DNA of 64,000 nt, from assembly GCF_037975245.1 (NCBI RefSeq), contig NC_092574.1:15077713-15141712 (forward strand), given 5' to 3'. The position numbers and the translations under genes were made by a program. Within the stretch, counting starts at the first letter, position 1, and each line of letters starts with the position of its first letter. The notes below the pieces were generated by a model, which saw only the letters and a program-made list of their open reading frames with translations, was not told the DNA's origin and searched no databases. The DNA is from Apostichopus japonicus. Its lineage: Eukaryota; Echinodermata; Holothuroidea; Aspidochirotida; Stichopodidae. This document shows, piece by piece, positions 18,408-63,204 of this stretch.

Positions 18408-18794
18408 CAGTGGCGGAGCGTCCATATAGTCAGGGGGCGAATGCCCCCCCTGACAGACTCAAATGGACTGCTGGCGCCCTTTTCAGCTTTTTGCCACTTT
18501 TTACTTATTCGCGATTATTGAATTCATTGCGCTCTCATCTACCTATTGACATTTGTCACATTTTGTTGGTGTCATTTTCTGACAAAATGCTCTTACGGCT
18601 AATTATTCTTCGTTTATCTGCAAATTAGCAATGCCCGGAAAGGGTCATTTCCAGCTATCTAGGGAGTATCTCTACTCAAAAAAATTCTGTACGCTCTGCG
18701 CCAACCTGTGGTGGCGCTCCGCTTAGATAGTGTCGAAAGCGCCCCTACAGACCATTCTCGCCCCCTCTGACCAATACCCCTAGCTCCGCCACTG
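18408..18794. mobile_element. hAT-like non-autonomous DNA transposon (MITE), 387 bp
   Basis: The ends are perfect inverted repeats: CAGTGGCGGAGC on the left and GCTCCGCCACTG on the right. The element is flanked by a perfect 8-bp direct repeat, ATGATGCC, at 18400-18407 and 18795-18802. A CAG..CTG end with an 8-bp target duplication is the hAT signature. There is no transposase frame. Near its right end it carries a GC-rich block (about 18688-18732) that recurs elsewhere in the window. Confidence 0.88.
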
Positions 18795-35519: not shown

Positions 35520-36620
35520 TATTTCTAAACAGTTACAGTGGTTAGTGATGTGTACTTAGAAAGTAAGACAAACTCTCTGTCTAGAATTCAACTTCCAGAG
35601 GATGTATTGATTTGGTATTTCTTTTCCTCATTTTGCAGTTAAAATATTAGAAAAGCCTATCATTTCTCAATTTACAGTTACTGTGGCACAGTTGTTATGT
35701 TGTAAAATTTTACATATTTATTATTGTTTTGTACAAAGAAATTGTCAATAAACTGAAAGAAATGAGACATACTCCTTGTCTTGAGCTCAAACACCAGAGG
35801 ATGCATTTGATTTACTATTTATTTGCCTCCTAATGTTGTGAAGATTAAATATTAGAAACGAGCATTAATTCTCAACAGTTCTAGTGGCGCAGTTGGTAGT
35901 GCTCTGGACTGGAGAGACACAGACAAACTCCATGTCTCCGGTTCGATCCCCAGACTGAGCATTTTGATTTTCTGTTCTTTTCCTTCTTCCATTCTGGACT
36001 TTGAAGTTTAAATATTAGAAACGAGCACTAATTCTCAACAGTTCCAGTGGCGCAGTTGGTAGTGCTCTGTACTGGAGAGAGACAGACTAACTCCATGTCT
36101 CCGGTTCGAACCCCAGACAGAGCATTTTATATTTTTGCTCTTTTACTGATTCCATTCTGGACTTTGAAGTTTAAATATTAGAAACGAGCATTAATTTTCA
36201 ACAGTTCTAGTGGCGCAGTTGGTAGTGCTCTGGACTGGAGAGAGACAGACAAACTACATGTCTCCGGTTCGAACCCCAGACAGAGCATTTTATATTTTTG
36301 CTCTTTTACTGATTCCATTCTGGACTTTGAAGTTTAAATATTAGAAACGAGCATTAATTCTCAACAGTTCTAGTGGCGCAGTTGGTAGTGCTCTGGACTG
36401 GAGATACAGACAAACTCTATGTCTCCGGTTCGAACCCCAGACAGAGCATTTTATATTTTTGCTCTTTTACTGATTCCATTCTGGACTTTGAAGTTTAAAT
36501 ATTAGAAACGAGCATTAATTTTCAACAGTTCTAGTGGCGCAGTTGGTAGTGCTCTGGACTGGAGAGAGACAGACAAACTACATGTCTCCGGTTCGATTCC
36601 CAGACAAGCTCCATGTCTGC
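35520..36620 (+). repeat. Tandem array of tRNA-derived units, period 161-163 bp
   Basis: The phrase CTAGTGGCGCAGTTGGTAG starts at 35881, 36044 (as CCAGTGG), 36207, 36370 and 36531. Each unit carries an A-box-like TGGCGCAGTTGGTAGTGC, a B box GGTTCGAACCCC or GGTTCGATCCCC, and a linker AGTTTAAATATTAGAAACGAGCA. A more diverged unit lies before 35870. The folded anticodon and T stems are poor, so these are tRNA-derived repeats and not likely working tRNA genes. Confidence 0.8.
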
Positions 36621-42530: not shown

Positions 42531-42587
42531 AGTAACAGAGTGAAGGATGATGGGGTGGCGCTATGTCAAAAAGCTAACTGTTGACCA

Positions 42588-42660
42588 ACATAATCCTCAG
42601 ATCCCTAATGAAAGGAGAGGAATGCAAAAGAAATTAGCAAATTTTCTTCAAAGTAAGTCT
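42588..42660 (-). repeat. Duplicate of the border of the ABCC exon fragment
   Basis: The stretch CAACATAATCCTCAGATCCCTAATGAAAG and following bases match 43672-43740 (CAACATAGGCCACAGATCTC..) with about 15% differences. It is the 5' end of a duplicated ABCC exon and its upstream intron, with the coding part gone. Confidence 0.6.
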
Positions 42661-42899
42661 CATACATTTAGCACAAAACATTAAACACTAATAAGCAACT
42701 ACTTCCACCAAAGTTTAGGCTGTGATTGAAACTTTACTGGTGGAAACATAAGTAAATATATATTACATTTTTAGGAACCTTTCTTTCTTATGACTAACCT
42801 TGACAGCTTTCCAGCTAAGCTGGTGTTTTTCCATCAAATCAGCTCATCTTTGAGTTTTCTGATCTTGACAACAATCAACTGTCTTTTTAATTTACCACA

Positions 42900-44870
42900 A
42901 CCCAGACCACACTAATTGGCAACTCTTTCCAACAATCTAAGGCAACAATCATCAATTTAAGACAACCGAATTACTAACTACACAATGATTCCAACAAACT
43001 AAGGCACCGGGTTTCATTAATTTAGCACAAAACAGACCACACTAGTTAGCAACTCATATCAATAAACTAAGGCAAAACTTATAAATTTAATACAAACACA
43101 CCACACTTATTACCAACAAATTATCACAGCACTCCTCTTCAATTAACTTGATAGCACAAACAGATCACACTAATTAGCTACTCATTCCACCAAACTAAGG
43201 CACAATGTCTCTTTAATTTATCACGAAACAGACCACACCAAATACCGACTGCTTCCATCAGGCTAAGGCACAGTGTCTCGTAGGTTTAGCACGAAAACAG
43301 ACAACACCAAATACCGACTGGTTCCAACAGGCTAAGGTACCATGTCTCGTACATTTAGCACAAAAACAGACAACACCAAATACCGAATGCTTCCAACAGG
43401 CTAAGGCACCGCGTCTCCTACATTTAGCACTGATCTTGACAACAATCAACTGTCGAGAGGACAAGACTGATGTTAATGATTCTGGCGCACAATGATGTTT
43501 CCCTTGAAATTTAATTTTTCTCCAATTTCTGTTAAATCACCTCCAAATAACAATTCCAGATCTCTCTGTAGAGGACAGGCTTGAAGGATCTTCTCGTATT
43601 TGGTGGAGTTGAGATCTTTACCAAACAGAACGCTTCCTCTCACGGTATCATTTTGGATCCAAGCTTGTTGAGCAACATAGGCCACAGATCTCTGATGAAA
43701 GCAGAGGAATACATAACAAATTAGTCACTTTTCTTCAAAGTAACAGCAAAAGTAAAAAAGTCAAACCCTGTTAACAACCAAACTGTCAGCCGTGAGACAA
43801 AAGATGTGTACTCTTCTAGAGGGGCAATTTGTGAAAGAAATGGAATTATATGGTCAGTAGAAGTTATTGGACACTGGTTTGAACAACTCTCAAAAAAGAC
43901 CTCACTAAATACCAACTCGTTCCATCAAACTAGGGACAATGTCTTATTACTTTAAGACAACCAAAATACTTATTACAAATTCATTCCAACAAACTAAGGC
44001 AACGGGTTTCATTAATTTAGCGCAAAACAGACCACACTAAGTAGCAACTCATATCAATAAACTAAGGCAGAACTTATCAATTTAATACAAACACACCACA
44101 CCAATTACCGACTGGTTCCAATAGGCTAAGGCTGAGGTCTTATACATTTAGCACAAAAACAGGCAACACCAAATACTGACTGGTTCAAACAGGCTAAGGC
44201 ACAATGTCTCCTACATTTGGCACAAAACAGACAACACTAATTAAAAACTAATACCAATAAACTAAGGTACCATGTCTTAATAATTTAGCACAAAAACAGA
44301 CTACTTTAATTAGCTTCTCATGCCACTATCTGACTGGTTCCAACAGTCTAAGGCACTGTGTCTCGTACATTTAGCACAAAAACAGACCACACCAAATACC
44401 GACTGGTTCCAACGTGATAAGGCACTGTGTCTCGTACATTTAGCACAAAACCTTACCACACCAAATACCGACTGGTTCCAACAGTCTAAGGCACTGTGTC
44501 TCGTACATTTAGCACGAAAACTGACTACACCAACTACCGACTGGTTCCAACAGGCTACGGCACCGTGTCTCCTACATTTAGCACAAAAACACACCACACC
44601 AATTACTGACTTTTTTCAATAGGCTAATGCACCGTGTCTCGTACATTTAGCTAAAAAAAAGACCACACCGAATACTGACTGGTTCCAACATGCTAAGGCG
44701 TGTCTCGTACATTTAACACAAAAACAGACCACACCAAATACTGAATGGTTCCAACAGGCTAAGGCACCATGATGTCTCGTACATTTTTCACAAAAACACA
44801 CCACACCAAATACTGACTGGTTCCAACAGGCTAAGGCACCATGTCTCCTACATTAAGCACTGATCTTGGC
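42900..44870. repeat. Satellite with 69-bp period, partly degenerate
   Basis: Clear units run over 43210-43430 and 44100-44860. Key words are ACCAAATACCGACTGGTTCC, AACAGGCTAAGGCACCGTGT and CTCGTACATTTAGCACAAAA. Successive ACCAAATACC words at 44391 and 44460 are 69 bp apart. Because 69 is divisible by three, long frames stay open on both strands; these are not genes. The array is interrupted by the ABCC exon fragment at 43440-43740. Confidence 0.85.
43490..43692 (-). pseudogene. ABCC (MRP-type) transporter exon fragment, copy 1
   Basis: On the - strand, after a plausible acceptor (TTTCATCAG), the frame reads SVAYVAQQAWIQNDTVRGSV, then LFGKDLNSTKYEKILQACPL, then QRDLELLFGGDLTEIGEK. This is the Q-loop region of the first nucleotide-binding domain of ABCC transporters. 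Normally a GVNLSGGQ.QR signature follows EIGEK; here it is LNFKGNIIV, so the signature is lost or degraded. With no neighbouring exons and a second copy embedded in the same satellite, it is probably a duplicated exon fragment and not a working gene. Confidence 0.7.
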
Positions 44871-44874
44871 AACA

Positions 44875-45040
44875 ATCAACTGTTGAGAGGACAAGACTGA
44901 TGTTCATGATACTGGCTCACATTGATGTTTCCCTTGAATCTTACTTTTTCTCCAATTTCTGTTAAATCACCTCGAGATAACACTTCCAGATCTCCCTGTA
45001 GAGGACAGGCTTGAAGGATCTTCTCATATTTGGTGTTAAT
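44875..45040 (-). pseudogene. ABCC transporter exon fragment, copy 2 (truncated)
   Basis: Matches 43436-43605: the words GACAACAATCAACTGTCGAGAGG-type, TCTCCAATTTCTGTTAAATCACCTC and TGTAGAGGACAGGCTTGAAGG recur with a few changes. The 5' half of the exon is missing after about 45036. It lies at the edge of the 69-bp satellite just as copy 1 does. Confidence 0.65.
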
Positions 45041-48915: not shown

Positions 48916-48993
48916 ACTGTCAATTGCGTGATATAATGTTACATGTAAGGACGTCCAGAGCTTGTTTACGGTCAACTTCACATTAGCTATGTC

Positions 48994-49032
48994 CACTGAT
49001 CTGTACACTAACAGTTAGTGTACAGATCAGTG
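48994..49032. mobile_element. Ultra-short palindromic insertion, 39 bp, copy 1
   Basis: Arm CACTGATCTGTACACTAAC (19 bp), one A, and the perfect reverse complement of the arm. It is flanked by a perfect 8-bp direct repeat, GCTATGTC, at 48986-48993 and 49033-49040. It has no unique interior. Two relatives lie at 60586 and 62999. Confidence 0.85.
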
Positions 49033-49059
49033 GCTATGTCCGACCATGGTCCGACACAG

Positions 49060-49305
49060 CTATCGACGGTATATAATTTTCGCAGAATGAGACATTTGCA
49101 GCATACACAGAGGCAGTGTCATGCATGTGGACTCATGGGCATCAGATACTCCGGGTGCTGAAAAATCTTTCCGCGTGGATCTCAAAAAATGGATCCAAAG
49201 TCTGCGGCGTTTTACGTCGGTTTTTTTACTCGGAAATCTAAAAAAGCTGATGCTTTTGTTGGATGAGGTATAACTGCAACCTCCAACAACACAGAATTGT
49301 GGCAT
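49060..49305 (-). pseudogene. THAP-type zinc finger remnant
   Basis: The frame begins MPQFCVVGGCSYTSSNKSIS followed by FFRFPSKK, then RRLWIHFLRSTRKDFSAPG. This matches the THAP domain opening (Cys pair, F.FP box, Trp). The second zinc pair, normally C..HF, is replaced by SDAHES, so the domain seems damaged. Similar domains occur in P-element-type transposases and in host transcription factors. No further exon was found downstream. Confidence 0.55.
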
Positions 49306-49616
49306 TTCGGGGAAAAGGAGTAAGATCGTTGATGTTTAATTTTGGCAGCTCAAGTATACGACTTTACACACTAAAAGTATTGTTGTGAGTGAGGTATACA
49401 AACAGTGACGTCACAGAGTCACATGATGTCTTCGGAATGTTTCAGGAATGTCTGAAATAGGTTTCATAAAAAGCTGACTTTTCTTCCCATTTTTCACGTA
49501 TTTAACGTCCGAAATTGGTAAAGTTAATTACAGCAATGTAATTGGAGTGAGTTAAGGATTACATACATGCAAAATGGTGGGATTTTATGTTCATCGAAAA
49601 GTCTCCATAGTTGGTC

Positions 49617-50115
49617 TTTAATCTTGGAGTGACTCGAACCAGGGACCTTATGATTGAAAGGCACCGGCGTTAACTACAGAGCGAACACTCCACAATAATG
49701 TAATATACCCTGTTACCATCAAGTAACACCTTGTTTCTGGTACTCTATGTATATGGGAGATGTATAGCTTTAATTTCGGTATATATTTTGATATGATGTG
49801 TATTGAAGTCAATCACACATGATTTGGAGTAAAAAATAACATAAACAAAAATGTGGTTTGGTTTTTGTCTTCCACATATGTTCGAAAGAAATATTTTTGT
49901 CTAAATACAATTTCAATTATTGTTGCATTGCCTGATTATACTGGATTTGTATGTTATTTTTGCACATAGTTTACAAGTTTTATATTTTGGGGTTGAAATA
50001 GCAATAAAAGGTTTAATTCTCAAGATCTACAGAGCTCTTTTGGTTTGTTTTAATTTCCTCTCATGATTTCCAAAATTCTTAGATTACAAAAATATTTTAA
50101 AATAGCAGCTGCAAT
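49617..50115. repeat. Long dispersed repeat, copy 2 (starts with reversed SINE head)
   Basis: Second copy of 32382-32877 in the same orientation. It begins with ATCTTGGAGTGACTCGAACC (SINE head reversed) and ends with AAAATAGCAGCTGCAATG. The SINE body present at 32232-32381 is missing here, so this copy was cut at the SINE or inserted from that point. Confidence 0.8.
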
Positions 50116-51086
50116 GTTGGAATTCGGTAGCCAGGTTTAGTGAATGAAGTGCGAATCCAAACGATGAAATTCAAAACTGCAATTGTTGTTGATACTAAGA
50201 AACTTTACATACCCCCACCCCTCCCTCCCCTCGCCGCCTCCAAATCAATGTTTGATTTGCAAGTAACTAATGATTCGATGCTATTCTCACACACCGTCGC
50301 CTGTTCAGAAACATTTTCTATTCGTCGCATACAGTTTGCTTAATTTAAAGTGATATGCGACCTGCCAAGCTTTCATTTTGGATGAAATGTTAGGATATAT
50401 TGAACAGAATCCTACGATAACCTACTTAATACCATTCGGAACAATTTCTAATCGTTCTGACGAATTAATTACTTCTTTGGAAAGAATTAACTAATCGTAG
50501 CAACGAATTACTACCGTTAATTATTAGCAACGAATTAAACACATTTTTCGGAAGGGTCTAATAGGCTTTCGGTTGATGCAAATTTCGAAAAAGCGTTCTT
50601 ATTTGTTAATCTCACAATCGGATTATTCATTCTTGAATATAACTGACATCGTTTCATTTCACATAAAAAAAGGTTTCTTGAACTTTCTTTTTCAATTAGA
50701 ACCTTTTCAAATATGTGTTGGTATCAAACGACTGTTAGGCCAAGTTAAAAAGTTTCATAGCTCTCTCGTCGATAATGTCACTACCTTAAAAAGTACATCA
50801 ATGTATACATTTCACATAGGATACAAACATTCGTGACAACGATGTTTGTGCCCCACCTCCCCATCCACCCCCCCCCCCCACCTCCTACCACCAAAAGGGG
50901 ACACTTCTTAATGTATAATAAAGTGCATTTCTAAGGTCTTCATTAATGTGGGATACGTATATCTCCGACCCAGAATCGCAACCCCTAATAATGCATCACT
51001 GTGTTGTTATTTCTGCCCCCCCCCCCCCTAGCATGTAATCTTACACCGTAACATGTTACTTTCTTTGCCAGGGTTGTCTCATCTAC

Positions 51087-54000
51087 TCAATCTCCGTTTA
51101 GGGAGTTTGATTTCTCGCTGTTAACCTGCGATGATGTCTCGTCGGAAGATGACGACGACACGTCCATACTAGCCACAGATAAAGTTTTACCCTTCTTCCA
51201 TGACGATCTTGCTCTTTCCTGTCTGTGGATTCTTTTCTCTGTGTTGATGACTAAATTAAGAAACGAACGTTGCTATATATTAATGGTTCTCAATTTAAAA
51301 TAGTTGATTCGAAGATTGTAAACAAGCATTGGTTAATATGTGAAGAAATATTTATTTATCAAAATAGTGCGGAGGATTATACATCGTAAGTCTCTAAATT
51401 GTTACGATGGTCGAAATCCATTACTGGGTAGGGACCGGGGGGACGGGGGGGAGGGGGTCGGTTATAACTATTTTGGGGCGGAAAGTGGGCAAGAGTAGAA
51501 GAAAGTGAATGAATTACAGAAAACTAACTGGGAAATATTCCACAGGACAGGTTTCTTTCTCTCTTTTTTAACCATGTAGAAGTATAAATGAATTTTTTGG
51601 CTGATTATAAAACGGTTGAGGTCGAAATTCGAGAAATAAAAAAGGAACTAGAAATACCTGTCCATCTTCGTTAGGATTTGGCTAATTAAAACTTCCGTCT
51701 GTATGTTCGGTCTCAAAAGTGACTATATGGCACTCAGACCGACTGGCCCACCCCACCCCTTAACATTTTTTTTAAACAACTTTTCATTGGTAGTATATAT
51801 CACCTGCAAAACGCAAATAGATTTGTCCCCCCCCCCCCTCAATGTTGACCCAATTGACCAATTTCAATGCCAAAAAAAGGTGATTGAAGTAAATTAAAGG
51901 CGAGGGGTTATCCAACCCAATCCATACATGCTATAAGGAAGTTGGTTTATACTTACCGCTGAGAGAAGGCGGTGCATCATAGACAACCGGTGTCACCCGT
52001 TTTAACAAATCTCGATCAAAATTTCGGAATTCGTTATTTAGGCAAGTCCGTAAAGAAACACACTCTTGGCACGGCTCTGCTCTGTAAGGAACCGGCTGGA
52101 AACTGAAACACAGGAAGATTTTACAAATGTCAGTTAGGTACATAATTAGCCGTTGAGTCTTTCATTGTCACAGTCTCCCATTCGAAATGGAAGTCGTTGT
52201 TCCCATCAAATCATTCAAGAGAGTGAAGACTCGCGCACAAAGACACGTCTGATGCCGGTAATCTGACCTAGTTTCGAATGAGGTGTGACATAAGTGTTAG
52301 ACACCACAATCGATCCCAGCAAATGCACACACAGCTTGCTACCGTCAGTAATTAGACACTAGTGTATATACAGTTAATACGTGCAGCTACGGTCATTACC
52401 CACAACACAGTGTACATAGCAGCGATGGGCATCTCAGGTCCAGATAAAAGATAACAAGGTATCACGTTTCATTACTCTCTGCATTTTGTAGCGACAAGAA
52501 AAAACTTCACTTGCAAGCAACGGAAAGTTAACTGTTTTTATATATATGTTTTATTAGAGAGGGCGGCACGCGGTTTGGGACGAGTCTTCAATGCCTTTAA
52601 GTGGTATGGCTATCACGGGCATATCCAAGGAAAGGGTATGTCTAGAAGTGGATCACTCTCTCCCTCTCTCTCATAAAATCTTTCTGTCACTGAAATAAGT
52701 AAAAAACGTAATTTTTCTTAAGAAATGTACACAAATAAAAAATGTACACAGTGGAAAAGTTGATTACCCTACGAGCGCGATGAGTAATCCTTACCAGGCG
52801 CGTATCCAGGGGGGGCTTTGAGGGCGAGAGCCCCCCGGGTAAGAAAAAGAGGAGAGAAAAAGAGAGATAAGAAAAAAGGGAAAAAAGAACGGGGAAAGAG
52901 GAGGAAGGAGAGGAAGGAAGGGAAAAGAAAAAGAAGAAGGAGAGAAAAAGGAGAAAGGGAGGGAGTAGAAGATAAACGCCAAGACACCGGGAAGAGAAAG
53001 AGGAACAGTCATAATTACAGCTCTGATCCCTATTATATACACAGGGTAGCCAGTGACGGATCGAGGATTTCGGAAGGGGCGTGCGCCTCAGCTTACCCCA
53101 TACACCGACAACTCCATTTTTGACGTTTCCATTTTTCCTCTCTCACTAATGTATATATATATATATATATACTATATATAGTATATCATGACGCGTGTGT
53201 GTGTATGGACGCCTTAAACAATTGTAAAATTGTGCTATGAAACCAACTGTGGCTGTTCTTGAACTCGACCGAGTCGTCGGGGAACATGCCTTCGGTATTA
53301 GCCCAGGATCTATATGCGAACTGCACTAGACATATGTCTTTCGATGCAACACTGTCTGTCTTGCAGAGTTAAAATGTTATACAACGCGAACTGAATGCTA
53401 ATTGTTACCCACCCCTAGAACCGTAACTCATACAATGAATCTAAAAATAAATTCCGCATGCGATTTGAGAATTGAGCACATTTCCTGTGAATATCATGTA
53501 TTGGATCCAAAGGCATATCATTGCCGGCGGGAGGGGGGGGGGAGGCGACGCACCCATCACTTCTTGAGATTGTTCCCATCTGCATGAAAACGCGCGCCCC
53601 GCAACCCTACGCCCACCCCTCTAATCGCTTCCCGATGAGTTACAAAACCAGACCCATCGTATACAAAAGTCTACTTGGAGTTTTTTTTTCTGCAGACGCC
53701 CATGCATTTGCCATGCCCCAAACTAAATTTCTAAGCCACGAGATCTAAAACTTAAGGATGTATGGGAGCATCATTGGGTCTGGGAAATGTTGTTTCCGGC
53801 GATCTGGGAGGAGTATTTGCCAAAAATTTCTTGTGCGCTACGCGCGAACCCATGGTCGCGCTCCGCTTAGATAGTATCAGAGAACAGACACGCGTCCCCA
53901 CCGCATTATCCAAGACTGATCTGCGCCCATGCACCAATATGTCAACTGTGTCTGAATTTTCGAAATTTCCATGACAAACATTCCTAAACATGGAGGTTTT

Positions 54001-54994
54001 TCTGCATTGGCTGTCCATAGATGAAATTTTGTGCAACATTATGGGTATGTTTTTAAGTGAATTGATTTCACGAGAAGTATGAATTTTCAAATTCTGAACG
54101 AATAATGGGCTTTAAACCTTGAAAAGTGGGGCTGACGGGTATTGTGGGCCGCGGCATAGAATCACCTACAAAAGCAATGATCCACAGGAGATCTGCGATA
54201 AGGTCGAACATGATGTGTGACTGGTGACAATCTTCACAAAGGTTACGGATGGAGAAAAAAAATATTGGGAAAAAACTTGGTTACTCAGGCAATAGTGAAC
54301 ATCTAGTTGGTCATTTTCAAGCCCGAGATGTGCCATTTCCGGTGATCTGGGTGTGTCAAAACCAGAAATTTTCCTGTACGCTGCGCGCCAACCAATGGTG
54401 GCGCTCCGCTTAGATGGTAATTCGCGCCCCCGGGTAAGAAAATCCTGGATACGCCCCTGCTTACTTTAACCATTGTTTTCTCATGGAACGCTAGTTTGGT
54501 AGTTAGTTGGATATCTGCCAAGGAGACTCCCAGTCACCTTGTGGTTACGTTATGAGTACAGCAGAATAGAAAGGGAAAAGAGAGTCATGACCCTCGTATG
54601 GCGACTCTTATGCAGTATAGGGAAGTTGAGGATGTACACACATTCTCCACTTCCCTATACTGCTGTTATCTTTCCTATTTTGCAGGGAAATTGGTGGCAA
54701 TGTCTAGCAACATTTTACAAACACATTGTTACAGCGTGTGAAATAGAAAATGAAACCGAATTCAATCAGTTGATAACTTGTTTGGATTTTTCCGGCATAG
54801 GAAATGACCATGAGAGGAGTATCTAATAAATGTCTATGAAGAATGTCTATGATATAAATTAACATTGATTGCATACAACGTTAAAAATATATCGCGTGAG
54901 TATTCTATGACTGTTTAAGGGCAATATCTGTTCCGGGTTTGTGCTCTTCACTAAAAACCATATGCCGCATTATGACATAAACAATGAAGAATAT

Positions 54995-55086
<92 letters not shown>

Positions 55087-55330
55087 GAAATCGTAATGAG
55101 TTGGAACATCCAGAACAGTGAAAAAACTTCCAAATAAATATATCTACGGAAAGCAAGATAATTTCACGTTCCTTTAAATCTTGAATACGCCGTGCAACAA
55201 ATGGGATGGGCGATACCACAAATCAAAGATAATTCGTAATATCATGGTTCAATCTCCAAAATTGAAATGCTTACCTGGATGTTGTCGCAAATTGCACGAT
55301 CGTTTGTTTCTTCGGATTCCAAAGATTCAT
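51087..55330 (-). CDS. Unrecognised small three-exon gene, 121 aa
   Basis: Rebuilt from splice signals. Exon 1 is 55330-55275 (ATG at 55330-55328, donor GTAAGC), exon 2 is 52102-51957 (acceptor TTTCAG, donor GTAAGTAT), exon 3 is 51250-51087 (acceptor TTAATTTAG, stop TGA 51089-51087). The phases (2, then 1) fit, giving 366 bp. An in-frame TAA lies two codons before the ATG. The protein starts MNLWNPKKQTIVQFATTS, contains RAEPCQECVSLRTC (four Cys) and KRVTPVVYDAPPSL, has a basic stretch (RIHRQERARSSWKKGK) and ends in a Ser-rich tail (DVSSSSSDETSSQ). There is no signal peptide or membrane segment. A donor-like GTAAGTATTC at 56322-56331 may mark an upstream noncoding exon. No function is proposed. 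The Ser/Asp tail could be a phosphorylation target. Confidence 0.6.
52797..53090 (-). mobile_element. Polypyrimidine-rich transposon-like repeat, copy 2 (inverted)
   Basis: Reverse-orientation relative of 48525-48915. It starts CAGGCGCGTATCCAGG, has a GA-rich interior, and then reads TGATCCCTATTATATAC, CCAGTGACGGATCGAGG and GGAAGGGGCGTGCG. The shared sequence includes both ends of the block, so the two are copies of one composite element. Confidence 0.65.
53800..54465. repeat. Transposon remnants carrying two copies of the GCGGAGCG-rich block
   Basis: Copies of the shared block lie at about 53825-53877 and 54372-54418: CGCGCCAACC.ATGGTGGCGC then TCCGCTTAGAT. The segment ends with GAAAATCCTGGATACGCCCCTG (54441-54462), which looks like a hAT-type terminus. 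No matching target duplication was found. Confidence 0.55.
54613..54662. mobile_element. Ultra-short palindromic insertion, 50 bp, unrelated family
   Basis: CAGTATAGGGAAGT at the left and ACTTCCCTATACTG at the right are perfect inverted repeats. The pairing continues inward with a few mismatches to almost no loop. The flanks CTCTTATG (54605-54612) and CTGTTATC (54663-54670) match at 6 of 8 bases, as an aged target duplication would. A hairpin RNA precursor is the alternative reading. Confidence 0.5.
54990..55083. repeat. TA dinucleotide repeat
   Basis: About 90 bp of pure TA within intron 1 of the small three-exon gene. Frames across it are Tyr-Ile artefacts. Confidence 0.9.
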
Positions 55331-55629
55331 AACGCATTACATTCATAACGAAATACTATATACGTCACCTATTTCTGGTATTTTAATCCCGACAAAAAAA
55401 GGAAAGAAAAGTTTAAACCCTCAAAATCATACTTTGAAAGAAAAAAATATGATGACTTTATTCTGTACAGAAGGAGGGGGGGGAGGAGCAAAAATCTTGT
55501 TGACATATATTTGTTATACAAAAATACTGAAAGTCAAATATGCCTATACCAGAACGTATTGGCTATAAGGCTATGACTATAATATATATAGGCATACAAT
55601 GAAACAACTCAAATATGGTCTCATTCATC

Positions 55630-55695
55630 ATCTTCCTTTGTGTTCAAATCCTTTGAATTCACATCCTTTGTGTTCACATCCTTTGTGTTCACAAT
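55630..55695 (+). repeat. Short tandem repeat, period 18 bp
   Basis: The word ATCCTTTGTGTTCAC and close variants occur four times in a row. It lies upstream of exon 1 of the small three-exon gene on the - strand. Confidence 0.75.
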
Positions 55696-55920
55696 AGAAC
55701 ATGCATGTGGCATGAGACCGTATAAACGTGAGTTTTATCGGGAAGATAAAGTGCTTAATTAGAGAATTATCTCCTACTCTTATTCACAATAACCGTAAAT
55801 ATATGCAACTAAATACCAGTTTCGAATTATACACTATATGATACCTTACATCCTTTCATATATTACTTTATCTACATATAAAATCAAACCATTTGTGTGT
55901 GTGTGTTGGCGGGGAGGTGG

Positions 55921-55939
55921 GGGGGGGGGGGGGGGGGGT
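55921..55939 (+). repeat. G-run (possible G-quadruplex)
   Basis: An almost pure run of G preceded by a short GT repeat (TGTGTGTGTGTTGG). Such runs can fold as quadruplexes and are often misassembled. Confidence 0.7.
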
Positions 55940-56611
55940 AGCGAGGCCTTTTCCTGGTGACAGGGGGTAGAGTGGTATAAAGCTGGTGCTGCAGGGAGTG
56001 GAAGGGTGTAGATTAACTCCCACATATATCTCCTAAAAAAGGGCTGAGCCTTTGTTGATCAGAGGAAAAGGCAGCACAAATATTATACATGTCAGGAATT
56101 ACTTTGAAAGTTCTTTGGATTGAATATCCATCTTGATTCTTGTTTGTTTGTTTTAAGCAAATGATTGAAATAAAAATATAACTTCAACTCAGTCCTCCGG
56201 CCACCCCTGAATTAAAAGTCACTAACATGAAGACTTGAAAGTAATTGTAAACAATTGCAGCAAAGGCTTAAACTACTTTTTGTGTCACAATTGTGAAATA
56301 AAAATTTAAAAAATGAATACTTACGTATAGTTTCTTAAAGTTTTCCTTGATACTTCTTCTTCTTCTTCTTCACTTCTTTTTCTCGATCTATACAACCACG
56401 CAACGCTTATCTCATGCAGTCTATGCTTTCCAGACGTCTCCTTTTAAAAATGTAATACGTACAAAGAGAAGGGGAAAGATAAACAACATTTAATCCCTTT
56501 CATTGTGAATATATCGCAGTACAATTCTTGACTTGGGTCCTTCTGAACATTAGCCTATTGTTATTAACCACTCCTATTGTTGGTGTTTTCTATTACGTTT
56601 GAATCATCCTT

Positions 56612-56945
56612 TGTTTGTTGAGAATATGAAGAATGAATTGGACACCAGCAACAGTCCACCAGTGAAATCAATACCCAGTGTATTGTTGCTAGTGATTATT
56701 TACTCAGTGGAGATATATACAGCGCTATAAGATTTAAGAGAGTTGGCCAATATACATCACAGCCACTTTGAAAAGTTTCATCCTGTAAATTGTGTCAATA
56801 TTATTTTCCACTATTTCCGTGGTAGGCAGCGACCTTGCATCGATGACGACAGACGTCAGAAGTTCTGTGAGGACAGTGTTTGGGGTCGAAAACGTTCGTG
56901 GGCCTGCTGAAGGGGCGACCATGGGTGCGGGTGGGCCTTCTGAGT
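56612..56945. repeat. Diverged duplication, copy 1
   Basis: Shares with 58589-58805 the words GAATGAATTGGACACCAG, AATATACATCACAGCCAC and AACGTTCGTGGGCCTGCTG. Compared with copy 2, this copy carries about 70 extra bases near 56795-56865. A - strand frame of 88 codons (57000-56734) crosses it; I do not recognise its product. It may be a fragment of a mobile element. Confidence 0.65.
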
Positions 56946-57873
56946 GGGCCAGTGAATGGCGCAACCATTGAGTGATCAATCGAATACATGTTAAAATCAC
57001 AAATTACATGGGAAGTGAGTAATTTCGCCTTTTATTTGAAAAAGAAAGAAAATGAAATTGTCAACTTTAAGATGCAACATGGTATGACGACATTCCCCAA
57101 GCCCTGCTTGTGAATCTCCCACTCGACCACTACACCCTCACATCCCGTCCATTCACTTCCCATAAATGGTTTTGGGTATAACCGAAACCCTCAATTCAAG
57201 ACCCACTGTCCGTTCTGAGAAACTGATTGTGCAAAACAGCTGCACGCCTCCATCCCTGGCTCAAGGCTATATGACAAATATTCCCTACCATCGACTCACC
57301 ATAACATTAAGAGAAATAGAAACATTTAGCTGTGTGAAGATGTTTGTATCAGCACATATATGCCCCACTCTATACGAGGTCGTAAATTGGCCTAACGCCT
57401 GTAAAACAACTAAAGCAAGGTGCGCAACCATCTTGTCTATGTAGTAGGTTGGGTGGGGAATGGGGTGGGGAATGGGGGGGGTGGGGAGGGCTATGATATT
57501 AAGTCGTCCAGGGAAGGGTTCTCATAGCAGTCGTGCCCCATGACCTTTGTGAATTGAGTAAAGTGGCGGATGCTGAGAAACAACGTTGAATGAATTAAGA
57601 ATTTGCACCTGCACATATCAGGCCTACACCACAACCACCACATGTTATAAATTTAATTTATACTGTACACTTGGATATTTTGTATTATTCTATCTGCCAT
57701 GGGGAGGGGGTGGGTGAGGGGGGCTTAGCTTCTAGCTTCCCATTCTTTTGACTTCCCCATATGTATACGTAGAGAAAGAGCATGATAGGCTGTCAAGCAT
57801 ACAATTCAACATGCACACAGGTAAACACCGTCCATACAGAGCTTCGTATATTAGCTAGGTTACATACAGTAGA

Positions 57874-57949
<76 letters not shown>

Positions 57950-57950
57950 C
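57874..57950. repeat. TA dinucleotide repeat
   Basis: About 75 bp of TA with a single AATAT interruption. Confidence 0.9.
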
Positions 57951-58588
57951 ATACATAACATATACGATGATGTCATCATGTTATTTTCATACCAAAACAA
58001 TAATTTGTTTCAAACTTTTCCCTTCACACAATATTAAGGAACTCAAATTATATGTAAACAATAGTATTGAATATAAAGTGCATTCAGTAATAGGATCCAC
58101 CGTGCTGATTAATCTGGCATGGAGAGAACAATTCAGCTTAAAAGGTCTTTTACCCTGAGTAGGAACCCTATACAGTCAAGTCATCGGTATACAAACCGAT
58201 GAACCGTAACTGGTCGAGAATATTTTGTAAGGTACTCGAGATATTTTCAATACTGAGTTAATTGCTGGCTTCGAAGAGGGAAGTTAAATAATTTGATGTT
58301 TCACGCCAACAGAAATTAACGACTGCAGTAACACTCACTATTGTAATATCATCATACGTTTTACACATATGTAACTGACACAACTAGTGACAAGCACTCG
58401 ACGGTACGAACACATCACACCAATTCTACATGATCTACATTGGCTGCTAGTGTACTCCAAGTCTCGGTTTTAGATTATGGTGTACACTTTTAAAGACCTC
58501 GACAATTCAGGACTCATCCAGGACCTTCGTTCTCAATCCAAATACCCACTGGTTGTGTCCACAGTTAAAACGTCTACTTGTTTGTTGA

Positions 58589-58805
58589 GAAATGGAGAAT
58601 GAATTAGACACCAGTCCACCAGTGAACAACAATTCACCAGTGAAATCAATATCAATATAAGATTCAAAAGAGTGGGTCAATATACATCACAGCCACCCTG
58701 AAATGTTTTATCTTGTAAATTGTGTGTTCTGTGAGGACGGTGTTTAGGATAGAAAACGTTCGTGGGCCTGCTGATGGGGCGACCATAAGTGCTGGTGGGC
58801 CTGTG
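58589..58805. repeat. Diverged duplication, copy 2
   Basis: Second copy of the 56612-56945 repeat in the same orientation, shorter, with changes at about one base in eight. Confidence 0.65.
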
Positions 58806-59281
58806 GGCGGAGTATTCTATAGTTGTACACTGACAAGACCGAAAGTTGAATGGGTATCAAAGTTCGAACGCCCCTAAAATAACTTTCGTCATGTTGCAGA
58901 AAGTTAACCTAGTTTAATATGCCATTTCAATCGAGAAAAAACGTCAAGACAGTGCTTTACTGATCAAAACACTTTTATGCCATTTGATCGGCTTAGGTGT
59001 TCGAATTCTCGGTTCCACCATATGCTGCCTAAATTATGTAGAAAATGTCACTCAATAATATATTACAACTCTGTGGCTCTGTTGGCTCCACTTGCATATA
59101 TGTTATTGTCTGAGCAGGAGTGGTGAGCCATTGTAGCCGGCTACACGGAAGATCTATTTTCTAGAATGTTTTCTACAATTTGGCCCAATTATTAGGCATT
59201 CTATGTACCAAAATAATAGCTAATGACAATATTAACCGTTAAGATAGCTGTTGTATACTGGAGGTCGACCCCCTCCTAATT

Positions 59282-59338
59282 GTTCCGTTATATATAATAT
59301 ATAATAAATAATATTATAAATAAATAATTAATATATAA
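59282..59338 (+). promoter_or_regulatory. AT-rich, TATA-like region before the receptor gene
   Basis: TTATATATAATATATAATAAAT lies about 60 bases before the first ATG of the LRR-Ig gene. TATA-like words are abundant, but no specific start site can be set. Confidence 0.25.
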
Positions 59339-59350
59339 GACAACACCAAG

Positions 59351-60974
59351 ATGTATCATTCAATTATATCTTTGTTGTTGTTGATAATTTGTCTATATTT
59401 ATTCGATATCAACTTGGCGCAAACTATCTGTGGATCGGACTGTGCTTGTACTTGTGATGGCAATACCTTGGACTGTAGTAGCCTGGGATTGTCAAACTTA
59501 ACCGTCTGTGGACCATTTGAGGACTTCGAAGTGGTAAACTTTACCAACAACGATATAACTGAGTTAACTACAACTTTATGTGGATGCATCCATGACTAGT
59601 CAAAATCAAATAAATTCAGTAGCAGTTTCGGTTCGGCGTTGTCGATCGTCATGTGAAACTTACCTATTAAATCTCTCACATAACGCACTTCAATATTCAT
59701 CTAAACGTGCACTTATTGTGGATTATGATCGTATCAGGGTGGAACGTTTACTAGTAATAGATCTGTCGTTTAATAACATGGAATATTTAGAGCATGGATT
59801 CATTTCTTTAAATAACATTCGCACCATACGATCCCAAGTAACTTTAGCAATTGACTTGTCCTTTAACAAGTTATTATTTGTTCATCCAAGTGCTGTCCTT
59901 ATCGATTTTTCGTTTGATGAATTGCATCTTGTGTTAAATAACAATAATCTTAGTAATTTCAATGTCTCTTCATTTCTTGATAATGTCGGAAACGTTTATG
60001 ATTATTACGTCATCAATCTTTAAAACAACAACATTTCTGGATTTCATGAAGAGGATATCGAATATGTTTTCCATGATGATGTTAACCTCATCCTAGATGG
60101 AAACCCTTGGAATTGTGATTGTAGTCAGAGATATGTAAGCTTAACCACATCTCGTCTTCGAAGATTCTTAAAGGATGGTATCTCAATGGAACCGATTTGC
60201 GAGGTTCCGGAGTTTGTGAATGGACGTTCCCTATTATCACTTTCCGAGAACGAACTTGTCTGTGAACCAAGGCTTAACCAAAATATTAACCTAAACGAAC
60301 GAGTCAATGCTGGGGACACACTGCAGTTAACCTGTCCTGTAATTGGCGCAGACCCACCGATCGCGAATGTTGATTGGCAGATTCCTTCAGGAAGTCCCGC
60401 CCAAGGAGAGGAGACGTCATCAATCCATGTTCGGACCTGTCTCAATTGTTCGCTGGTAATCAACAACATACAGAAAGTCTTGGAAGGTGCCTACCAATGC
60501 ACTGTTTCGAACGGGCAAAGTTTAACCATCGTGCAGACGGTAATGGTAGATGAAGTCATGACATCGGTAACTGAGGGCTGCAAAACACTGATCTGTACAG
60601 ATCAGTGCTGCAAAACGACTTCGTTAAACGAGTCACGTGACCCTATCTTAGCACCCAAACGCCCTCTATTAATTGTTGTTATATTTCTTTCTGTTATTCT
60701 GGTCATTGTCGTTGTTTGTCTTGTAGTTGTTTGTTATAAACTATACAAAACAAAAGAGAATGATATCCCGCTGCCACAGAAGGGTAAGAATGAAACCTCC
60801 CAAAATGCACCTGGTTTACCAAGATATGACGTCAGTGTGGAAAACAAGGCCTTTGATGACGACAAACAAGAGGATGGGTACATGAAACCAAAAAGTTCAA
60901 AGACTAATGAAACGAAAGAAACTGAAGATATTTATGAACTCGATGAAATTAACGGTGCTGTATACGTTAATTAA
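59351..60974 (+). pseudogene. Intronless LRR-Ig-transmembrane receptor gene with frameshift and stop
   Basis: One continuous coding region without introns. Signal peptide: MYHSIISLLLLIICLYLFDI at 59351. A Cys cluster follows (CGSDCACTCDGNTLDC, an LRRNT-like cap). Leucine-rich repeats run to about 60110 (LLNLSHNALQ, LLVIDLSFNNMEYL, LAIDLSFNKL, LVLNNNNLSNF), then an LRRCT start (GNPWNCDCS). An Ig domain follows (QLTCPV..., VDWQIPSG, then GAYQCTVSNG). Then come a membrane segment (about 60658-60740, VVIFLSVILVIVVVCLVVVC) and a cytoplasmic tail with Tyr motifs GYMKP, IYELDEI and a terminal VYVN (a pYxN motif of the Grb2-SH2 type). The reading frame shifts between about 59560 and 59620, and a TAA interrupts it at 60021-60023. 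Everything after that is open to 60974. It is either a recent pseudogene or a null allele of a receptor likely involved in adhesion or immunity. A 22-bp palindromic insertion lies in the juxtamembrane part. Confidence 0.8.
60586..60607. mobile_element. Ultra-short palindromic insertion, 22 bp, inside the receptor coding region
   Basis: Arm CACTGATCTGT and its perfect reverse complement, with no loop. The 8-bp direct repeat CTGCAAAA lies at 60578-60585 and 60608-60615. Element plus duplication adds 30 bp, exactly ten codons, so the frame is kept. The duplicated target encodes a repeated Cys-Lys-Thr. Compared with the 38-bp copy it lacks the central 16 bp. Confidence 0.85.
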
Positions 60975-60999
60975 TGACAACAAATCACTTAAAACTAAA

Positions 61000-61899
61000 C
61001 AATTAAATAATTTCTGTACAGAATAAAGAATAATAAAGACATTTGTGTTCTATAGCGGTATCCTGCTCGGTTCGGTAAATTTTCAAACATACCATCTTTG
61101 AACAGCTATTGAGTCATAAACTATATTAAATAAACTGACCCAAGTTGTCTCAAAACATGATATGTTTTTAGTAAAGCGTTTGTCAAATACGGTAGATTGC
61201 AAATGATGGCGTATAACTTTTCTTTAGGAACTTAAGGAACATTTCAATTCAATCAGTCTGAAGTCAAGATGGCTGAATGTTCATCAAAGCAAGTATTAAA
61301 ACAAACAAGATTAATTGTGTGATAACACGGTTGGTCTTATTCATCATTTACTTCTGTTTTTGAAAGAACCTCGTTCTTCTAATGCTAGCTGTTAATCATT
61401 CAAGGTAGACTTTTCAAACTTTCATTGGAATAATAGTCAACAATGGCTGCTTGATAATCAGACGCTTTTCATAATTACTTTTCTGGTCTGAAAGAATCCG
61501 TTTCTTCTCAAATGTATTCATTAACTAGGTAGTTTGATTCTTAATATAAAATGAATTAGACTGAATTTTGACTTAAACTTTAATCTATCAACAAAATATA
61601 CGAGTCTATATCGTAAAAGGTTTATTATCATAGCTTTTTGCCCGATAGAGTGACGATATCTTATAGCCATTTTATGTTTCACTTTCTTTGTTTTTACGCT
61701 TAGTTTCTAATTCCAATTCTTCTTGAGCATACATTCAGTTTCCTGTCTTTAAAGGGCTTTGTTTATCCAAGATTCGTTAACTCTATGACGAAGTTATTTT
61801 GTTCTATTAATAGTGTATGTCTACATCACAATCATGCGCGCATCACGATATCTACTAGAAATGAAGATACCTGTTTAGTAAGTGTAAAGGAGGATATTA
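61000..61899. other. Downstream region of the receptor gene
   Basis: Two AATAAAG/AATAAAGAC polyadenylation-like signals lie at about 61021-61038, 45 to 65 bases after the receptor stop codon, consistent with its 3' end. Beyond that, AT-rich DNA without recognisable features runs to the transposon at 61908. Confidence 0.5.
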
Positions 61900-61907
61900 C
61901 CTTGTGA

Positions 61908-63204
61908 CATGGGCGGGATTACGGGGGGGGGGGGGGGCAAGAGGGGGCATTTGCCCCACTTTTTCCAGGACCTTAGTTTTTTTTTGTCGTTTTTGCAGAC
62001 AAATGTGCACAACCCTAATCGAAATTATTCCCCCACAACAGCTCTATCAAAATAGGCCTATTTGATTCGAATCTAAGTCGAATTTGTGATTAACATAGTA
62101 GCATGAAGCATGCAGAATAACTGGAGCTAGAGCTAGCACATGGTTCGCAGCACAGGTTACGAATCCGGAGCTAACAAACTAGCGATTCAATTCTGCATGT
62201 GATGAATCCGCGGCATGTGCTACATCCTAGCTTCAGGAATTGATTTGAGATTGAGATTTGAATTGAGAAACGATTTACGAAAGCCAAATTTGCATATTGG
62301 GTATATCAATAATTAAATTCAATATACTGACACATGACACCCCTCCCCCCGTGTAATTCAACAATATGCAATGGCAATGCAGTTTCTTTACTGCTCGAAA
62401 TCCTTGAATGATGCATGCAAATCGAATAATGTAAATTACAAATTGGCACTAACACAGTAACACATTAAATACATTGTTACAGTATACAGCACTCGGCAGT
62501 TTCGGTAGGGCCGATAAAATAATGTGCGGCTTTGAGTTCCGTTTTCGGATCTATTCTCGATGATGAATGAAACACTTACGTTTGGTTTTGCATAAAAGTG
62601 GGGTGGGGGGGTGAAGGTATGTTCAGCCCCCAATATTTGCCAAGTGCTCCAAGAAGTGGGGGCCGCGGGGAGAATTTCGAAGTGGGTGCTGAACATATTC
62701 TTGATCGGTAGAATGCACAATATACTAATAATTTTAGGGGGAAAGAACTGTCTAGATGTGATTTATTGTTACCAGAGGTGTTATATTTGCTGATCTAGGA
62801 TTTCCCTTTTGCTTAAATTTCGACGCTCCTTGCCAACCGATGATGGCGCTCCGCTTAGATAGTGACGTATATCAAAATTTGTACATCACCATCTGACCAT
62901 ACGTTATACTATCAATCCTCTTCAAATTTTTAAATGATAATTAACTATCTAGATACAATTGCAGACATGAGATCCATATTTTAAGGATGGGTACATGCCA
63001 CTGATCTGTACACTAACGTTAGTGTACAGATCAGTGGTGCATGCAGCTTAGAGCACTCGGGAAGTGCAGTTTCCGGCCATATGGAGGGTTTGTAAAGCCA
63101 AAAAATTTCTTGTACGCTCCGCGCCAACCGATGGTGGCGCTCCGCTTAGATAGTCTTGATGGCAGGTTTGTCCCCCCACTTTCACAACTCAAATCCCGCC
63201 CCTG
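61908..63204. mobile_element. hAT-like non-autonomous DNA transposon, 1297 bp
   Basis: Left end CATGGGCGGGATT and right end AATCCCGCCCCTG are inverted repeats with one mismatch. A perfect 8-bp target duplication, CCTTGTGA, lies at 61900-61907 and 63205-63212. A G-run lies at 61924-61938. Two copies of the GCGGAGCG-rich block lie at about 62822-62864 and 63107-63153, near the right end. A 38-bp palindromic insertion is nested at 62999. No transposase frame is present. Confidence 0.88.
62999..63036. mobile_element. Ultra-short palindromic insertion, 38 bp, nested in the hAT-like element
   Basis: Arm CACTGATCTGTACACTAAC (19 bp) joined directly to its perfect reverse complement. The flanking 8-bp repeats are GTACATGC (62991-62998) and GTGCATGC (63037-63044), 7 of 8 identical. 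Confidence 0.83.

What the first reader, a model, noticed from the sequence alone, without database searches (positions are those of the whole stretch)
48986..63044. A family of transposon-like insertions made only of inverted arms (22, 38 and 39 bp) with 8-bp target duplications
Three sites carry a perfect palindrome starting CACTGATCTGT. Each is flanked by a different 8-bp direct repeat: GCTATGTC twice, CTGCAAAA twice, and GTACATGC/GTGCATGC. The palindromes are identical except that the 22-bp copy lacks the central 16 bp and the 39-bp copy has one extra A. Different flanks with duplicated 8-mers mean independent insertion and not shared descent of a larger block. Known MITEs usually keep some interior; these have none. 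They may be hAT, P or Mutator-type ends mobilised in trans, or may move as hairpins.
Basis: partly seen in the sequence, partly recalled or inferred. Interest (0 to 1): 0.9.

Follow-up and report, generated by a model that had tools for sequence, protein, structure and literature searches.

The report
Excision scars of P-type transposons
The tiny palindromes are most likely scars left where a P-element-like jumping gene cut itself out of the DNA, and the same genome keeps many more such scars that record how the breaks were mended.

Summary
In detail: three palindromes (39, 22, 38 bp), each between 8-bp direct repeats, far beyond chance. The reading is turned round: they are best explained not as insertions of arms-only elements but as excision scars. 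The window's own genome (671.6 Mb, probably the sea cucumber Apostichopus japonicus) holds 42 exact copies of the 22-bp form (62 at up to 2 mismatches) and 91 matches to longer forms, plus 1.6-3.1 kb elements with the same 27-bp ends and 8-bp duplications. Scars keep about 19-20 nt or less of each end and are joined by microhomology, bluntly or with filler. Perfect palindromes come only in 22, 32 and 38 bp; annealing of two self-complementary stubs predicts 22 and 32, and 38 is a blunt 19+19 join. Drosophila P-element excision gives the same anatomy (PMC2895639). One end of the family lies beside a P-type transposase gene. It is a new member of the P superfamily; the apparent 19-20-nt stagger (17 in Drosophila) and the natural scar archive are the interesting parts.

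The parts
48986..48993 (.). scar 1: left copy of the 8-bp target duplication GCTATGTC
48994..49032 (.). scar 1: 39 bp, 19-nt stub of one transposon end (48994-49012) joined to a 20-nt stub of the other (49013-49032)
   Evidence: T at position 20 of the end
49033..49040 (.). scar 1: right copy of the duplication GCTATGTC
60578..60585 (.). scar 2: left copy of the duplication CTGCAAAA
60586..60607 (.). scar 2: 22 bp, two stubs joined at the self-complementary TGTACA
60608..60615 (.). scar 2: right copy of the duplication CTGCAAAA; scar plus duplication add 30 bp in frame to the open frame 60024-60971
62991..62998 (.). scar 3: left copy of the duplication GTACATGC
62999..63036 (.). scar 3: 38 bp, two 19-nt stubs joined bluntly
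63037..63044 (.). scar 3: right copy of the duplication GTGCATGC (one base differs)
60024..60971 (+). context of scar 2: stop-free frame with an immunoglobulin domain, carrying the scar in frame
61908..63204 (.). context of scar 3: candidate hAT-like non-autonomous element (duplication CCTTGTGA, 12-bp ends with one mismatch) in which the scar is nested
   Evidence: classed from its ends only

Best explanation
Each palindrome is the healed donor site of a P-superfamily DNA transposon. The element (27-bp inverted ends CACTGATCTGTACACTAACTGGATTGG) inserted and duplicated 8 bp of target. A P-type transposase later cut it out with a long stagger: at the outer edge of the transposon on one strand, and about 19-20 nt inside the end on the other. 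Each side of the break was left with a 3' overhang carrying about 19-20 nt of the end. The host joined the two overhangs by annealing short self-complementary stretches (TGTACA gives 22 bp, TA gives 32 bp), bluntly (38 and 39 bp) or with filler DNA. The result is two head-to-head stubs, often a perfect palindrome, between the two copies of the target. Shown here: long elements with the same ends and 8-bp duplications, the scar spectrum, the limit near 19-20 nt, an empty paralogous copy of one scarred repeat, and a P-type transposase gene beside one end of the family. Inferred: the cleavage chemistry, the strand polarity and the repair pathway.
For: Long elements with the same 27-bp ends: 10 fetched, 9 with identical 8-bp duplications, standing for 7 insertion sites. 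102 scar rows: duplications 8/8 in 79, 7/8 in 17. Among 91 non-22-bp matches the longest stub is 19 nt in 38, 20 in 14, 21 in 8, 18 or less in 30, 29 in one, with 42 distinct forms. In 73 independent sites kept: 6-nt microhomology 23, 2-nt 13, 1-nt 8, blunt 11, filler or altered 18; perfect palindromes only of 22 bp (23), 32 bp (4) and 38 bp (5). Same anatomy in Drosophila P excision, with perfect palindromes in 19 of 66 isolates by my sum of Table 1, in Rad51-deficient flies (PMC2895639). L146 carries the family's terminal 500 bp (93.7% identity) downstream of a frame with the P transposase domains, matching the solved P transposase at E 2.8e-23. Empty paralogous site in L061 for 11 of 13 rows of one scarred repeat.
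Against: The stubs run to 19-20 nt, not Drosophila's 17. One scar keeps 29 nt of one end. 4 of 102 rows have duplications matching at 4 of 8 or less, 2 more at 6. The L146 transposase copy lacks the outermost ~29 bp at the end seen, its other end was not seen, and no complete autonomous element was found. No occupied and scarred alleles of one site were compared. The GT..AC target motif is shared with hobo, a hAT element.
Confidence: 0.91

Rival explanations
1. Arms-only micro-elements of 22-39 bp inserted as such, moved in trans or as hairpins.
For: Different 8-bp duplications at each independent site; the 22-bp form is the commonest (42 exact copies).
Against: 42 distinct forms among 91 non-22-bp matches, many asymmetric or with filler: a transposing unit would breed true. 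Dispersed 22-bp copies with the same flanks are passengers in two repeat families (13 and 7 rows). Long elements with the same ends exist.
Confidence: 0.03
2. Excision scars, but of a hAT-type (or other non-P) transposon with 8-bp duplications.
For: 8-bp duplications and a GT...AC target motif are shared with hobo (PMC3276498 passages); candidate hAT-like elements lie in the window.
Against: A P-type transposase frame lies beside the family's end. The ends start CACTG, not hAT's YARNG (consensus recalled). hAT is held to cut at its very ends with flanking hairpins (recalled), so 19-nt stubs are not expected. The one hAT-like end tested gave 0 end-to-end places genome-wide (only one 12-bp end, copy number not measured).
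Confidence: 0.04
3. Inserted elements collapsed in place by slippage or cruciform processing between their inverted ends, without transposase.
For: In a 38-bp scar the direct repeat TGTACA...TGTACA would give the 22-bp form by slippage, so a single 22-bp scar could have been shortened later.
Against: Random collapse should leave breakpoints all along the 27-bp end and beyond; 90 of 91 longest stubs are 21 nt or less, 60 of them 19-21, and no match has a gap of 34-44 nt although it was allowed (91 for gaps 3-33; 50 + 41 for gaps 3-44).
Confidence: 0.02

Closest known systems
Drosophila melanogaster P element and its excision junctions (PMC2895639: passages and one part of section 3; PMC7776569: passages)
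   Same: 8-bp duplications; head-to-head end stubs between the two target copies after excision; palindromic joins at self-complementary dinucleotides, longer microhomologies and filler; cut inside the inverted end.
   Different: End sequence unrelated (CATGATGAAATAACATA...); 17-nt stubs against 19-20 here; 31-bp ends against 27; the fly data are laboratory events in Rad51-deficient flies, these are natural genomic scars.
Anopheles gambiae P elements and P-MITEs (PMC1562414, passages)
   Same: 27-31-bp ends, perfect 8-bp duplications, non-autonomous relatives with unrelated interiors, like the 1.6-3.1 kb elements here.
   Different: No footprints are mentioned (the term 'footprint' occurs 0 times in that text); other sequences.
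Zebrafish Pdre2 / THAP9 (PMC10983969, passages)
   Same: P-type transposase in a non-insect animal, 8-bp duplications, ends beginning CA.
   Different: 13-bp ends (CATACCTGTCAAC) with distant subterminal repeats; different sequence.
Galileo, P superfamily (PMC3573991 and PMC4168063, passages)
   Same: P superfamily; many copies reduced to two ends or one end.
   Different: Long ends that extend or shrink by rearrangement and 7-bp (rarely 8-bp) duplications; copies with two ends there are not 19-nt stub pairs.

Membership tests
P superfamily of DNA transposons | Transposase with P domains (PF12017, PF21787, PF21788, PF21789) in the family | tested here: met
   L146 frame: PF21788, PF21787, PF21789; L145 frames: PF12017, PF21787, PF21788, PF21789; 6p5a match. 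L146 carries the family's terminal 500 bp but not the outermost ~29 bp; L145 has a related end. No complete autonomous copy was seen.
P superfamily of DNA transposons | 8-bp target duplication (7 in 1360 and most Galileo) | tested here: met
   9 of 10 long elements at 8/8; 96 of 102 scar rows at 7 or 8 of 8.
P superfamily of DNA transposons | Inverted ends of about 27-31 bp beginning CA (Anopheles, Drosophila) | tested here: met
   Perfect inverted end 21-29 bp in 10 of 10 long elements, 27 in 7 of them.
P superfamily of DNA transposons | Long staggered cut inside the end (17 nt in Drosophila) | tested here: inconclusive
   Scars imply about 19-20 nt; the cut itself was not measured and the number differs from 17.
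P superfamily of DNA transposons | Palindromic target motif GTCCGGAC / GTTNAAC | tested here: met
   GTYNNRAC over 73 sites counted on both strands; not exclusive, hobo is GTNCGNAC.
P superfamily of DNA transposons | N-terminal THAP DNA-binding domain | tested here: inconclusive
   No THAP domain among the Pfam hits of the frames scanned, but these are partial exons; upstream exons were not sought.
P superfamily of DNA transposons | GTP-dependent excision activity | not testable with these tools
   Only the GTP-binding insertion domain is seen (PF21788).
hAT superfamily | End consensus YARNG | tested here: not met
   Ends read CACTG; the consensus is recalled.
hAT superfamily | 8-bp target duplication | tested here: met
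   As above.
hAT superfamily | hAT transposase linked to the ends | not tested
   No hAT family search was made; a P-type frame is linked instead.
MITE (the palindromes themselves) | A defined transposing unit that multiplies with its own interior | tested here: not met
   42 junction forms among 91 matches; repeat-borne 22-bp copies travel with other repeats.

The most novel reading that the evidence does not exclude
The end sequence may be shaped by its own scars. Its TGTACA makes the commonest scar 22 bp, which with the 8-bp duplication adds 30 bp: in frame, and free of stops in two of the three frames. The transposon could then leave coding exons without destroying them and seed short new peptides, as in the open frame at window 60578-60615. 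In 73 independent scars, length + 8 is a multiple of three in 40, 23 of these being the exact 22-bp class.
Probability: 0.1. Interest if true: 0.7.

Novelty: new member of a known kind. Interest (0 to 1): 0.52.

Why it matters
It replaces a puzzling class of transposon-like palindromes with an ordinary, checkable cause, and warns that end-only 'elements' in other genomes may be scars. One family has left 133 exact matches in this genome (42 + 91, about 132 places; 76 independent sites among the 102 rows examined), a natural record of germline end joining and of where a P-type transposase cuts outside insects. It predicts a 19-20-nt stagger, longer than the 17 nt known from Drosophila, and offers a sequence-only way to read the cutting position of other transposons.

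Tried and rejected
Viral and bacterial collections: one 19-mer hit in a viral contig (L001) is a lone arm with no second arm in the part read (bases 1-700), taken as chance; 0 places for the 22-mer in viral contigs and 0 for the 19-mer in genome contigs. The 15-kb convergent pair on contig C15 looked like an autonomous element but is a long element of the same family opened by a 12.4-kb insert. P-type loci L143 and L144 showed no end like this family in the 8 kb held. Literature: searches for tiny or arms-only elements and for the end sequence itself listed nothing that I judged relevant from the listings; searches for P footprints listed reviews and related papers; the fly junction paper was opened by its DOI. 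These cover only the held open-access library, so I do not claim that such scars are unreported. Considered and dropped: hAT origin, hairpin transposition, slippage collapse (see rivals). Never answered because the genome-search machine was busy: a count of the full 27-mer end at 3 mismatches, and a genome-wide count of empty copies of the GCTTGAAG repeat.
Full report
What was checked. A search without prior knowledge of the sequence (perfect arms of 9 or more, loop up to 60, 8-bp direct repeat with at most one mismatch) returned these three plus two AT-microsatellite hits, and nothing in 40 random windows. The window is animal DNA: frames with a ribosomal protein S3Ae domain, an immunoglobulin domain, a weak leucine-rich-repeat match (below its cut-off) and an endonuclease of the retrotransposon type. 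The assembly holding it has 671,581,487 bases in 35 contigs. The published Apostichopus japonicus assembly has 671.6 Mb, 23 chromosomes of 18.21-46.02 Mb and 34 scaffolds (PMC10344927, passages); the largest and smallest of the contigs seen here, 46,036,110 and 18,203,763 bases, nearly fit. The species name is therefore an inference.

The genome-wide picture. The 22-bp form occurs 62 times at up to 2 mismatches, of which 42 exact and 5 with one mismatch by my count of the listing, which is sorted by mismatches. Exact 11-nt arms separated by 3-44 nt give 91 matches (50, 41; one search gave the same total for gaps of 3-33). One place on C3 is read twice, so there are about 90 places. Patterns read backwards gave 0 each time. 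The outer 19 nt followed by a base other than G occur 58 times forward and 50 times in reverse (100 of the 108 listed). Among those listed are ten convergent pairs 1.6-3.1 kb apart, all fetched. They are one family without long open frames (none of 110 aa or more in nine of ten, one of 135 aa in L060), with inverted ends perfect over 21-29 bp, typically the 27-mer CACTGATCTGTACACTAACTGGATTGG; 9 of 10 have identical 8-bp duplications. L052, L055, L057 and L060 share a flank and look like copies of one insertion inside a repeat, so the ten stand for seven sites. The C15 pair, 15 kb apart, is an eighth, with an 8/8 duplication, opened by a 12.4-kb insert and 99.7% identical to L051 over 2.46 kb, which suggests recent movement.

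The scars. I examined 102 rows: 45 of the 62 22-bp matches (all 42 exact ones, the window's included, and 3 of 5 with one mismatch; the others were not fetched) and 57 rows of other forms (two from the window; L043 and L044 are two readings of one place), out of 91. Target duplications match at 8 of 8 in 79, 7 in 17, 6 in 2, and 4 or fewer in 4 (L043, L044, L102, L129). As a control, the left flank of one scar and the right flank of another match at 7 or more in 130 of 10302 ordered pairs; I take these to be mainly the repeat-borne copies that share flanks. Grouping by flank leaves 76 sites, 71 of them at 7 or 8 of 8. Two repeat families carry the same 22-bp scar as a passenger (13 and 7 rows); for 11 of the 13 rows of the first an uninterrupted, empty copy of the site was found in L061.

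Why excision and not insertion. First, the forms differ mainly at the central junction, and there are 42 distinct forms among the 91 non-22-bp matches. This is the mark of a cut at a fixed place about 19-20 nt inside. Third, in the 73 independent sites kept (3 of 76 with poor duplications dropped), joins use 6 nt of microhomology (23), 2 nt (13), 1 nt (8), none (11) or fall in a class with filler or altered bases (18); at least L040, L100 and L101 in that last class look like point mutations of simpler forms. Fourth, a 20-nt stub can anneal to its copy at TGTACA, at TA (16-17) or at GATC, giving palindromes of 22, 32 or 12 bp; the perfect palindromes found are 22 bp (23), 32 bp (4) and the blunt 38 bp (5), with no other length among the 73; 12 bp lies below the search. 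Fifth, Drosophila P-element excision gives the same anatomy: 8-bp duplication, up to 17 nt of each end head to head, 8-bp duplication, with perfect palindromes at (AT) in 14 and (TA) in 5 of 66 isolates (my sum of Table 1, from Rad51-deficient flies; PMC2895639). There the transposase cuts 17 bp inside the end (PMC7776569, passages).

Which transposon. A search for the P transposase RNase H domain found 45 matches in the genome. Four of these places were fetched. L146 has a 487-aa stop-free frame with three P domains that matches the solved Drosophila P transposase at E 2.8e-23. Downstream, at 5993-6491, it carries the terminal region of the long elements at 93.7% identity to L052, lacking the outermost ~29 bp. 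L145, 65-68% identical to L146 in protein, has at its left a related end, CACTGATC--TACACTAACTGGATAGG, followed by a similar CCGGAAGT...GGCCATGTT stretch (the likeness of that stretch was judged by eye and blastn at E 0.001 did not report it). L143 and L144 showed no such ends. L146 is the only copy of its kind (100%); the next relatives are 67% or less identical over long matches. The target motif over 73 sites, counted on both strands, is GTYNNRAC, like P (GTCCGGAC) and 1360 (GTTNAAC), but hobo is similar (GTNCGNAC) (PMC3276498, passages). Anopheles P elements have 27-31-bp ends and 8-bp duplications (PMC1562414, passages). Together this places the family in the P superfamily. No complete autonomous copy was identified, and by eye none of the 45 matches lies near the end places listed.

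Results that do not fit neatly. One scar keeps 29 nt. Six of 102 rows have duplications at 6 of 8 or less. The stub length is not Drosophila's 17. A 22-bp scar might in single cases have been shortened later from a 38-bp one by slippage between TGTACA repeats; the data do not separate this from joining at excision. The hAT control (0 places) tested only one 12-bp end of unmeasured copy number. Scars with an end stub shorter than 11 nt escape the patterns (L020 shows one, with GTCATAAC on both sides), and the tool calls its counts lower bounds, so all counts are minima.

The three window sites. Scar 1 (39 bp) is 19 + 20 nt, scar 2 (22 bp) a TGTACA join, scar 3 (38 bp) 19 + 19 nt. Scar 2 lies in a stop-free frame with an immunoglobulin domain (60024-60971) and with its duplication adds 30 bp in frame. 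The upstream leucine-rich part of that gene has a frame change and a stop in this assembly, away from the scar. Scar 3 sits inside a candidate hAT-like element 61908-63204. Three scars within 14 kb would suit the local hopping reported for P (PMC7776569, passages), which was not tested.

Noticed in passing
window 18408-18794, 27756-28125, 61908-63204: Three candidate hAT-like non-autonomous elements with identical 8-bp duplications (ATGATGCC, GTTATCTC, CCTTGTGA) and 12-bp inverted ends; classed from ends only.
   Followed up: partly
L064, L066, L068, L069, L071-L074, L079, L081, L085, L087, L092 and L075, L078, L082, L089-L091, L097: Two dispersed repeat families carry the same 22-bp scar as a passenger (13 and 7 rows): a scar multiplied by another repeat. 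An empty copy of the first lies in L061.
   Followed up: partly
window 59351-60974: Leucine-rich-repeat plus immunoglobulin membrane-protein gene, apparently without introns; the upstream part shows a frame change and a stop in this assembly, so a pseudogene, an allele or an assembly error.
   Followed up: partly
window 35839-36606: Tandem repeat of about 163 bp whose unit includes a tRNA-Ser-like stretch; ARAGORN calls one tRNA-Ser at 36366-36449.
   Followed up: no
contig C16, about 5.19-6.08 Mb: A cluster of broken P-transposase-like frames, 29-39% identical to L146 in the longer matches.
   Followed up: no
window 42579-45035: Block of direct repeats with 69-bp spacing and longer units (families D2, D5, D6, D9, D17).
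   Followed up: no
L061-L062 (contig C15:26249779-26264987): A long element opened by a 12.4-kb insert, with 7 bp of the element present on both sides of the insert; the insert was not identified.
   Followed up: no
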